The position numbers were made by a program, and so were the translations under genes. Shown here one piece after another: positions 53,722-54,672 of a stretch of 64,000 nt of DNA (position 1 is the first letter of the stretch; each line of letters starts with the position of its first letter). Below the pieces are notes generated by a model that was not told the DNA's origin, did not search any database, and saw nothing but the letters and a program-made list of their open reading frames with translations. Location: the NCBI GenBank assembly GCA_012103255.1, contig WLXD01000001.1, forward strand, positions 1,129,501-1,193,500, written 5' to 3'. This DNA comes from Acidobacteriota bacterium (GTDB lineage: Bacteria; Acidobacteriota; UBA890; WLXD01).

Positions 53722-54672
53722 CTAGCTCCCAGTCGGGTTGGTTGACGGCCAACTCGCGGTCCAACGCGCACAGTACTGCCCAAGCTTGACAGGGTCAGGC
53801 TCTTGCTCATAAAGCCGGGCCGCCCGCTGCACGAATCTCTCGATGGCTGAATCTGCGATCCGCGATCCCGCTGGACTGAAGTGCACGCCCAGGAACTCGA
53901 AGCCGCGCTCGATTCTCCCGATGAATGTCTTGTCGGGATGTTGCTCCAGGGCCAGATCGGCGAGGACCTCGTTCATCGCCTTCACCGCACGCCGGAGCTT
54001 CCATCGGGTCGGTGCCAGGATGACGATGTCGTCCATGAAGCGAACGTAGTCGACGTCCTTCCGCTCCAACGCCTGGTCCAGTTCCGTCAAAAAGAACGCG
54101 CCGATCAGCGGGCTGAGTGAGCAGCCCCGATAGATGCCGGTGCGGTTGTCTGCGAACAGGCCGCCCCACTCCACCGTGTAGCGCAGGTACTGCCCCAACA
54201 GGTTGAGCACCGCGCGATCAGGCACGAACCTTTCGATTCGTTGCAGCAGTAGCTCATGGTCGATGGAGTCGTAGTAGGCGGCTACATCGGTGCGAGCCAC
54301 GAAGCGATGCTGCGGCAGCCGCTGGCGGACGGCAGCGATCGCTCCATGCGCGCCGCCGTAGCCTTCGACGTGCGTGCAGCGCGGCGAGATCGGCAGAGTG
54401 TCCTGGAGGGTGATCGCCAGGGCCTTGAGTACCAGTGCATCCGCGGCGCGCCAAACGTGCAGGGTTTCGCCCTCGTGAGTGGTGATCCGCTGCACGGACG
54501 AGAGGCGATAGGTGCTGGCGCGCAGCTCGGTCTGGATGCGGGCCCGCTGCCTATCCCAGTCGTGTCGCAATGCCCAGACATCTGCCTGCGCAGGGTAGTT
54601 CTTACGGCGCTTGCACAGCCACTCGAACGCTGCGGCGATCACTTCGTCCGAGGCCACTCGATCGATCATCAC
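53722..54672 (-). CDS. Reverse transcriptase, compact group II-like/unclassified bacterial RT
   Basis: ARTDVAAYYDSIDHELLLQRI, GIYRGCSLSPLIGAFFLTELDQAL, YVRFMDDIVILAPTRWKLRRAVKAMNEVL, LEQHPDKTFIGRIERGFEFLGVHFS; 316 aa, no obvious maturase/endonuclease domain. Confidence 0.93.
   Translation of the reverse strand: MMIDRVASDEVIAAAFEWLCKRRKNYPAQADVWALRHDWDRQRARIQTELRASTYRLSSVQRITTHEGETLHVWRAADALVLKALAITLQDTLPISPRCTHVEGYGGAHGAIAAVRQRLPQHRFVARTDVAAYYDSIDHELLLQRIERFVPDRAVLNLLGQYLRYTVEWGGLFADNRTGIYRGCSLSPLIGAFFLTELDQALERKDVDYVRFMDDIVILAPTRWKLRRAVKAMNEVLADLALEQHPDKTFIGRIERGFEFLGVHFSPAGSRIADSAIERFVQRAARLYEQEPDPVKLGQYCARWTASWPSTNPTGS

What the first reader, a model, noticed from the sequence alone, without database searches (positions are those of the whole stretch)
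53722..54672. Compact RT of unclear class next to pseudopilins, not a standard DGR or intron RT
Catalytic motif is FMDD with APTRWKLRRAVKAMN and HPDKTFIGRIERGFEFLG. The motif-4 region is YRGCSLSPLIGAFFL rather than the DGR-type IGNLTSQ. There is no X/maturase or HNH domain (316 aa). This resembles group II-like or 'unknown group' bacterial RTs, some of which act in DNA repair or defence. A role in copying or diversifying the pilin array is speculative.
Basis: partly seen in the sequence, partly recalled or inferred. Interest (0 to 1): 0.75.

Follow-up and report, generated by a model that had tools for sequence, protein, structure and literature searches.

The report
UG4 reverse transcriptase on inserted island
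This is an intact reverse transcriptase of a known but uncharacterised bacterial class (UG4) that arrived on a DNA island inserted between pilin genes and shows no link to them; elsewhere its class sits against surface-adhesin genes whose sequences are strikingly variable, which makes the class's unknown function testable.

Summary
It is a UG4-class RT (PADLOC RT_UG4, 389 bits; next model 142), not a DGR, intron or retron RT.

The pilin link fails. In two relatives the same pilin array is continuous where this genome carries ~8.3 kb holding the RT and four other genes. Two further RT copies (96%, 77%) lie away from pilins. The pilin beside the RT is the most conserved of eight array pilins (81% to its orthologue). 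All three copies carry a tRNA-Val 3' half 540-610 bp past the RT, so this looks like a mobile, partnerless UG4 element.

A survey of about 150 UG4 loci gave something better. The gene against the RT's 3' end is often a surface protein: a fimbrial tip adhesin, or a convergent gene ending in a PEP-CTERM sorting signal (38 of 88 convergent genes; 1 of 127 upstream; 10 of 828 others). In close pairs RT and upstream flank match while this gene is replaced or locally hypervariable. No template repeat and no adenine bias were found, so it is not a DGR. I infer, unproven, that UG4 RTs diversify or exchange the linked adhesin; the window copy has no such partner.

The parts
53722..54672 (-). UG4-class reverse transcriptase, 316 aa, catalytic FMDD, motif 4 YRGCSLSPL, thumb helices; no further domain
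53666..54705 (-). stretch shared with copy 2 at 95.5% DNA identity (RT with short flanks)
53319..53665 (-). poorly conserved stretch just past the RT (about 40-60% between window copy and copy 2); no signal-peptide gene in it
53145..53318 (-). distal stretch again conserved with copy 2 (84.6%), running into the tRNA fragment
53132..53185 (+). 3' half of tRNA-Val(CAC), 54 bp, 98% identical to the tRNA gene at C4:316454; one lies 540-610 bp past every RT copy, antisense to the RT
52838..61113 (.). about 8.3-kb island between two pilin genes, absent from the same place in G002 and G003
54748..56319 (-). B12-binding/radical SAM protein on the island
56538..57602 (-). SpoIIE-type phosphatase on the island
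57828..58166 (+). PadR-like regulator on the island
58163..60901 (+). MacB/FtsX-like permease on the island (named from sequence, no profile search run)
52010..52837 (+). pilin-like gene next to the island; not hypervariable (80.8% to its G002 orthologue, highest of eight)
61147..61902 (+). pilin-like gene on the other side of the island

Best explanation
The gene encodes a UG4-class RT carried by a small mobile or transposed unit that entered the pilin array on an ~8.3-kb island; it is not part of the pilin machinery. SHOWN: UG4 membership by profile and nesting in a tree of relatives, three copies, the island, a tRNA-Val 3' half at a fixed place past each copy, no excess variation of the adjacent pilin. 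CLASS FUNCTION (INFERRED): elsewhere a UG4 RT copies RNA of the surface-protein gene lying against its own 3' end, or of a related gene, and the cDNA replaces part or all of the chromosomal copy, so the adhesin varies while RT and upstream flank stay fixed. In this genome the usual partner is absent (no exosortase, no signal-peptide gene against the RT), so the three copies are probably orphan elements that still encode an intact enzyme.
For: UG4 profile and tree. Three copies. Island missing in G002 and G003. tRNA-Val halves. Adjacent pilin conserved. Class level: signal-peptide gene at the RT 3' side 52/131 against 16/134 upstream and 111/687 others; PEP-CTERM ends 38/88 convergent 3' genes, 1/127 upstream, 10/828 others; profile hits to adhesin and sorting families; RT fused in one ORF with the adhesin in Klebsiella and Cedecea; fixed RT with replaced or hypervariable partner in close pairs.
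Against: No template repeat and no adenine bias, so no direct trace of reverse transcription in the variation. In L183/L188 pN 0.043 and pS 0.035 show no excess of amino-acid change. L167/L179 have an identical partner, and L204/L213 share the partner while the RT differs, which ordinary recombination explains. RT-free adhesin genes were not measured as a control. About a third of surveyed loci have no evident surface-protein partner. The role of the tRNA halves is guessed; no integrase lies near them.
Confidence: 0.5

Rival explanations
1. Passenger model: UG4 RT genes settle next to surface-protein genes whose diversity comes from ordinary recombination and selection. The RT does nothing to its neighbour; the window copy is one more insertion.
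For: Adhesin genes vary without RTs (established knowledge). L204/L213 and L167/L179 show RT and partner recombining apart. The window element behaves as a mobile unit without a partner.
Against: A passenger need not prefer the 3' side or one gene class: 38/88 against 1/127 upstream. The pairing recurs over a diverse tree with fused ORFs.
Confidence: 0.3
2. Antiphage defence RT, as its listing among DRT candidates suggests; the surface-protein link is secondary.
For: PADLOC places UG4 in its DRT list; RTs of the wider UG group include proven DRTs (PMC8934634).
Against: Named DRT models score far below cut-off. The recurring neighbours are adhesins, not defence genes. Defence-island enrichment was not measured.
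Confidence: 0.12
3. The RT diversifies or copies the pilin array beside it.
For: It lies among paralogous prepilins; UG4 RTs elsewhere adjoin fimbrial adhesins.
Against: Pilin arrays of relatives lack the RT; the adjacent pilin is the best conserved of eight; copies 2 and 3 have no pilins; no adenine-biased repeat pair in the array.
Confidence: 0.03

Closest known systems
UG4 ('unknown group 4') bacterial RTs
   Same: Profile score 389 bits; compact RT; same motif set; relatives beside fimbrial genes were recorded before (66% with a fimbrial domain in complete genomes, PMC8934634)
   Different: Window copy has no surface-protein gene against its 3' end and lies in tRNA-Val-bounded units; PEP-CTERM partners and the variable-partner pattern were not found in the papers held
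Diversity-generating retroelements (DGR)
   Same: Compact RT; best two-way structural match 8ub7 (TM 0.81/0.78); at class level a variable adhesin or lectin-like gene beside the RT
   Different: Motif 4 differs; no TR/VR pair or adenine bias; partner is often convergent
Group II intron and G2L RTs
   Same: Best sequence and Foldseek E-values in the PDB (6ar1/6ar3, 9d4s)
   Different: No intron RNA match, no maturase domain, 118 bits against a 300-bit cut-off for the intron model

Membership tests
UG4 RT | best match to the class profile by a wide margin | tested here: met
   389.5 bits, next 142.2; ten relatives also UG4
UG4 RT | groups with other UG4 RTs in a tree | tested here: inconclusive
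   nested among UG4 relatives, but no other RT classes were in that tree
UG4 RT | fimbrial or surface-protein gene against the RT (common, not universal) | tested here: not met
   nearest convergent gene is a pilin 885 bp away across the island edge
DGR | template/variable repeat pair with adenine-directed mismatches | tested here: not met
DGR | DGR motif 4 (IGxxxSQ type) | tested here: not met
   YRGCSLSPL in the translation
DGR | Avd accessory protein | not tested
   no search with an Avd model was run
Group II intron | intron RNA and maturase domain | tested here: not met
   no Rfam match at gathering score in the window; RVT_1 only
Retron | retron RT model and msr-msd RNA | tested here: not met
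   retron_St85_RT 31.7 bits against cut-off 235; msr-msd not examined beyond Rfam
DRT antiphage system | phage protection | not testable with these tools
   UG4 is listed by PADLOC only as a DRT-group model

The most novel reading that the evidence does not exclude
UG4 RTs are a second kind of diversity-generating reverse transcriptase, separate from DGRs: without a template repeat they vary or swap the surface adhesin encoded at their own 3' end, across many phyla. The window copy is an intact enzyme that has lost its partner.
Probability: 0.33. Interest if true: 0.9.

Novelty: new member of a known kind. Interest (0 to 1): 0.55.

Why it matters
UG4 is a recognised RT class with no known function. 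Its recorded fimbrial neighbours turn out to be one case of a broader pattern: the RT's 3' end lies against a surface-protein gene (fimbrial tip adhesin, PEP-CTERM, lectin-like) that differs even where RT and upstream DNA are the same. If the RT causes this, bacteria have a second, DGR-independent way of targeting diversity to adhesins, testable by one gene deletion and amplicon sequencing. The window locus itself is a useful negative: pilin proximity arose by insertion.

Tried and rejected
Adenine-biased repeat pairs in the window, own copies and the survey loci: only simple tandem repeats or too few mismatches. Shared leader RNA structure by RNAalifold in eight clades: nothing convincing. 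tRNA fragments at other UG4 loci: tRNA sequence within 1.5 kb of only 2 of 167, so that trait is private to this genome. Structure of a recurring partner family: model too poor to use (mean pLDDT 37). A first signal-peptide scan on stop-to-stop frames gave a 62% background and was discarded for a stricter rule. UG4 in phage records: none. G001 was first taken as a third relative with an empty site (my notebook still says so), but its contig ends at the junction, so only G002 and G003 count. Papers on UG4 or on PEP-CTERM with RTs: nothing beyond the fimbrial note; the library lacks many journals, and the one further paper on this RT group that I tried to open by DOI is not held.

Full report
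Observation. The PADLOC profile RT_UG4 scores 389 bits against 142 for the next model; ten of ten relatives chosen from the survey are also best matched by RT_UG4. Intron, retron and named DRT models stay far under their cut-offs. In the PDB the best Foldseek E-values are group II intron RTs; the best two-way TM-score is a DGR RT of similar length, 8ub7.

Local setting. The genome holds three copies: this one, C1:717403-718347 (96%) and C1:734387-735310 (77%). Neither of the others is near pilins. Every copy has the 3' half of tRNA-Val(CAC), antisense to the RT, 540-610 bp past its end; copy 3 has a second one upstream as a 98% direct repeat, giving a 1.7-kb unit. Copies 2 and 3 lie in a series of such halves at C1:718-736 kb, far from the tRNA gene (C4:316454). 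This resembles attachment-site repeats of integrative elements (inference); no tyrosine integrase lies beside them.

Pilins. In G002 (same genus) and G003 (same family) the orthologues of the pilins at 52010 and 61147 are adjacent (212 and 365 bp apart), so the ~8.3 kb between them in the window, with RT, radical SAM, SpoIIE phosphatase, PadR and permease genes, is best read as an insertion; loss in both relatives is not excluded. The pilin beside the RT is 80.8% identical to its G002 orthologue, the highest of eight (range 74-81%), and its RT-near quarter is 85%. This speaks against local pilin diversification.

Class survey. I fetched 79 loci from genomes, 78 from metagenomes, three of which are this genome itself, and plasmid and E. 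coli records. The nearest gene 3' of the RT has a signal peptide in 52/131 cases by a strict home-made rule, the nearest 5' gene in 16/134, other genes in 111/687 (a few own-genome loci slipped into that count). PEP-CTERM-like ends, by a home-made rule, occur in 38/88 convergent 3' genes, 1/127 upstream genes and 10/828 others, after removing own-genome loci and identical RTs. Profile searches of 87 partners give PEP-CTERM in 28, plus DUF1554, collagen, invasin, FISUMP and fimbrial domains, and no prepilin. Those 87 were picked from 124 by leaving out frames that looked like non-genes, so their rates are not unbiased; the 38/88 count is free of that choice. Loci are related to one another, so the Fisher p-values printed in those calls overstate the independence; the tree still needs at least 15 changes of the PEP-CTERM label. 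In Enterobacterales the RT stands in F18/Pef-like operons directly before the tip-adhesin gene, and in Klebsiella and Cedecea the two form one ORF.

Variation. Luminiphilus paralogues L056/L057: no mismatch over 900 bp of RT, partner N-part identical, partner C-terminal lectin-like part unalignable. L158/L160: RT and upstream flank 99-100%, partner replaced apart from its sorting signal. L183/L188: a handful of differences over 1.3 kb of RT and upstream flank, but 26 substitutions and two indels in ~300 bp of partner, spread over base types; pN 0.043 and pS 0.035, no clear excess of amino-acid change. Budvicia L084/L097: partner 3' region near random, 5' region conserved. Among pairs with upstream flank at least 0.90 identical, most fall to near-random identity past the RT; L167/L179 do not and L183/L188 only locally. 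Pairs were picked by hand from the list, so this is a pattern, not an estimate.

Reading. Recorded knowledge covers the class and its fimbrial neighbours. The PEP-CTERM partners and the fixed-RT, variable-partner pattern were not found in the papers held. A diversification or exchange role is the simplest account of side, gene class and variation together, but ordinary recombination of adhesin genes with a hitch-hiking RT remains open, since RT-free controls were not run. The window RT has no such partner and no exosortase was found in the genome (assembly 95% complete), so I treat it as an orphan copy.

Noticed in passing
C1:718-736 kb of the genome; L004, L005: Eight tRNA-Val(CAC) 3' halves in one orientation bound units of about 0.4-4.8 kb, with tRNA-Met fragments in between, far from either tRNA gene; no integrase beside them.
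   Followed up: partly
C4:167565-176977 and C5:10271-32398 of the genome: Fragments of tRNA-Leu and tRNA-Arg lie downstream of their own genes, like ordinary attachment-site repeats of integrative elements.
   Followed up: no
C7:14755-14892 of the genome: A stretch matching the ~140-bp leader upstream of RT copies 2 and 3 occurs without an RT after it.
   Followed up: partly
L085, L089, L092, L109: UG4 RT reads through in one frame into a secreted adhesin or repeat protein (Klebsiella, Cedecea, Klebsiella sp., Thiomargarita); whether a fused protein is made is unknown.
   Followed up: no
window 46876-63170: At least eight paralogous GspG-like prepilin genes in a row with paired HTH_17 genes, syntenic in relatives of the same family; function unknown.
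   Followed up: partly
L204/L213, L167/L179: Pairs where the partner gene is identical while the RT differs, showing that RT and partner also recombine apart.
   Followed up: no
L056/L057, L082/L094, L152/L153, L166/L168: In several close pairs homology begins 130-140 bp before the RT, hinting at a conserved leader; no shared structure was found.
   Followed up: partly
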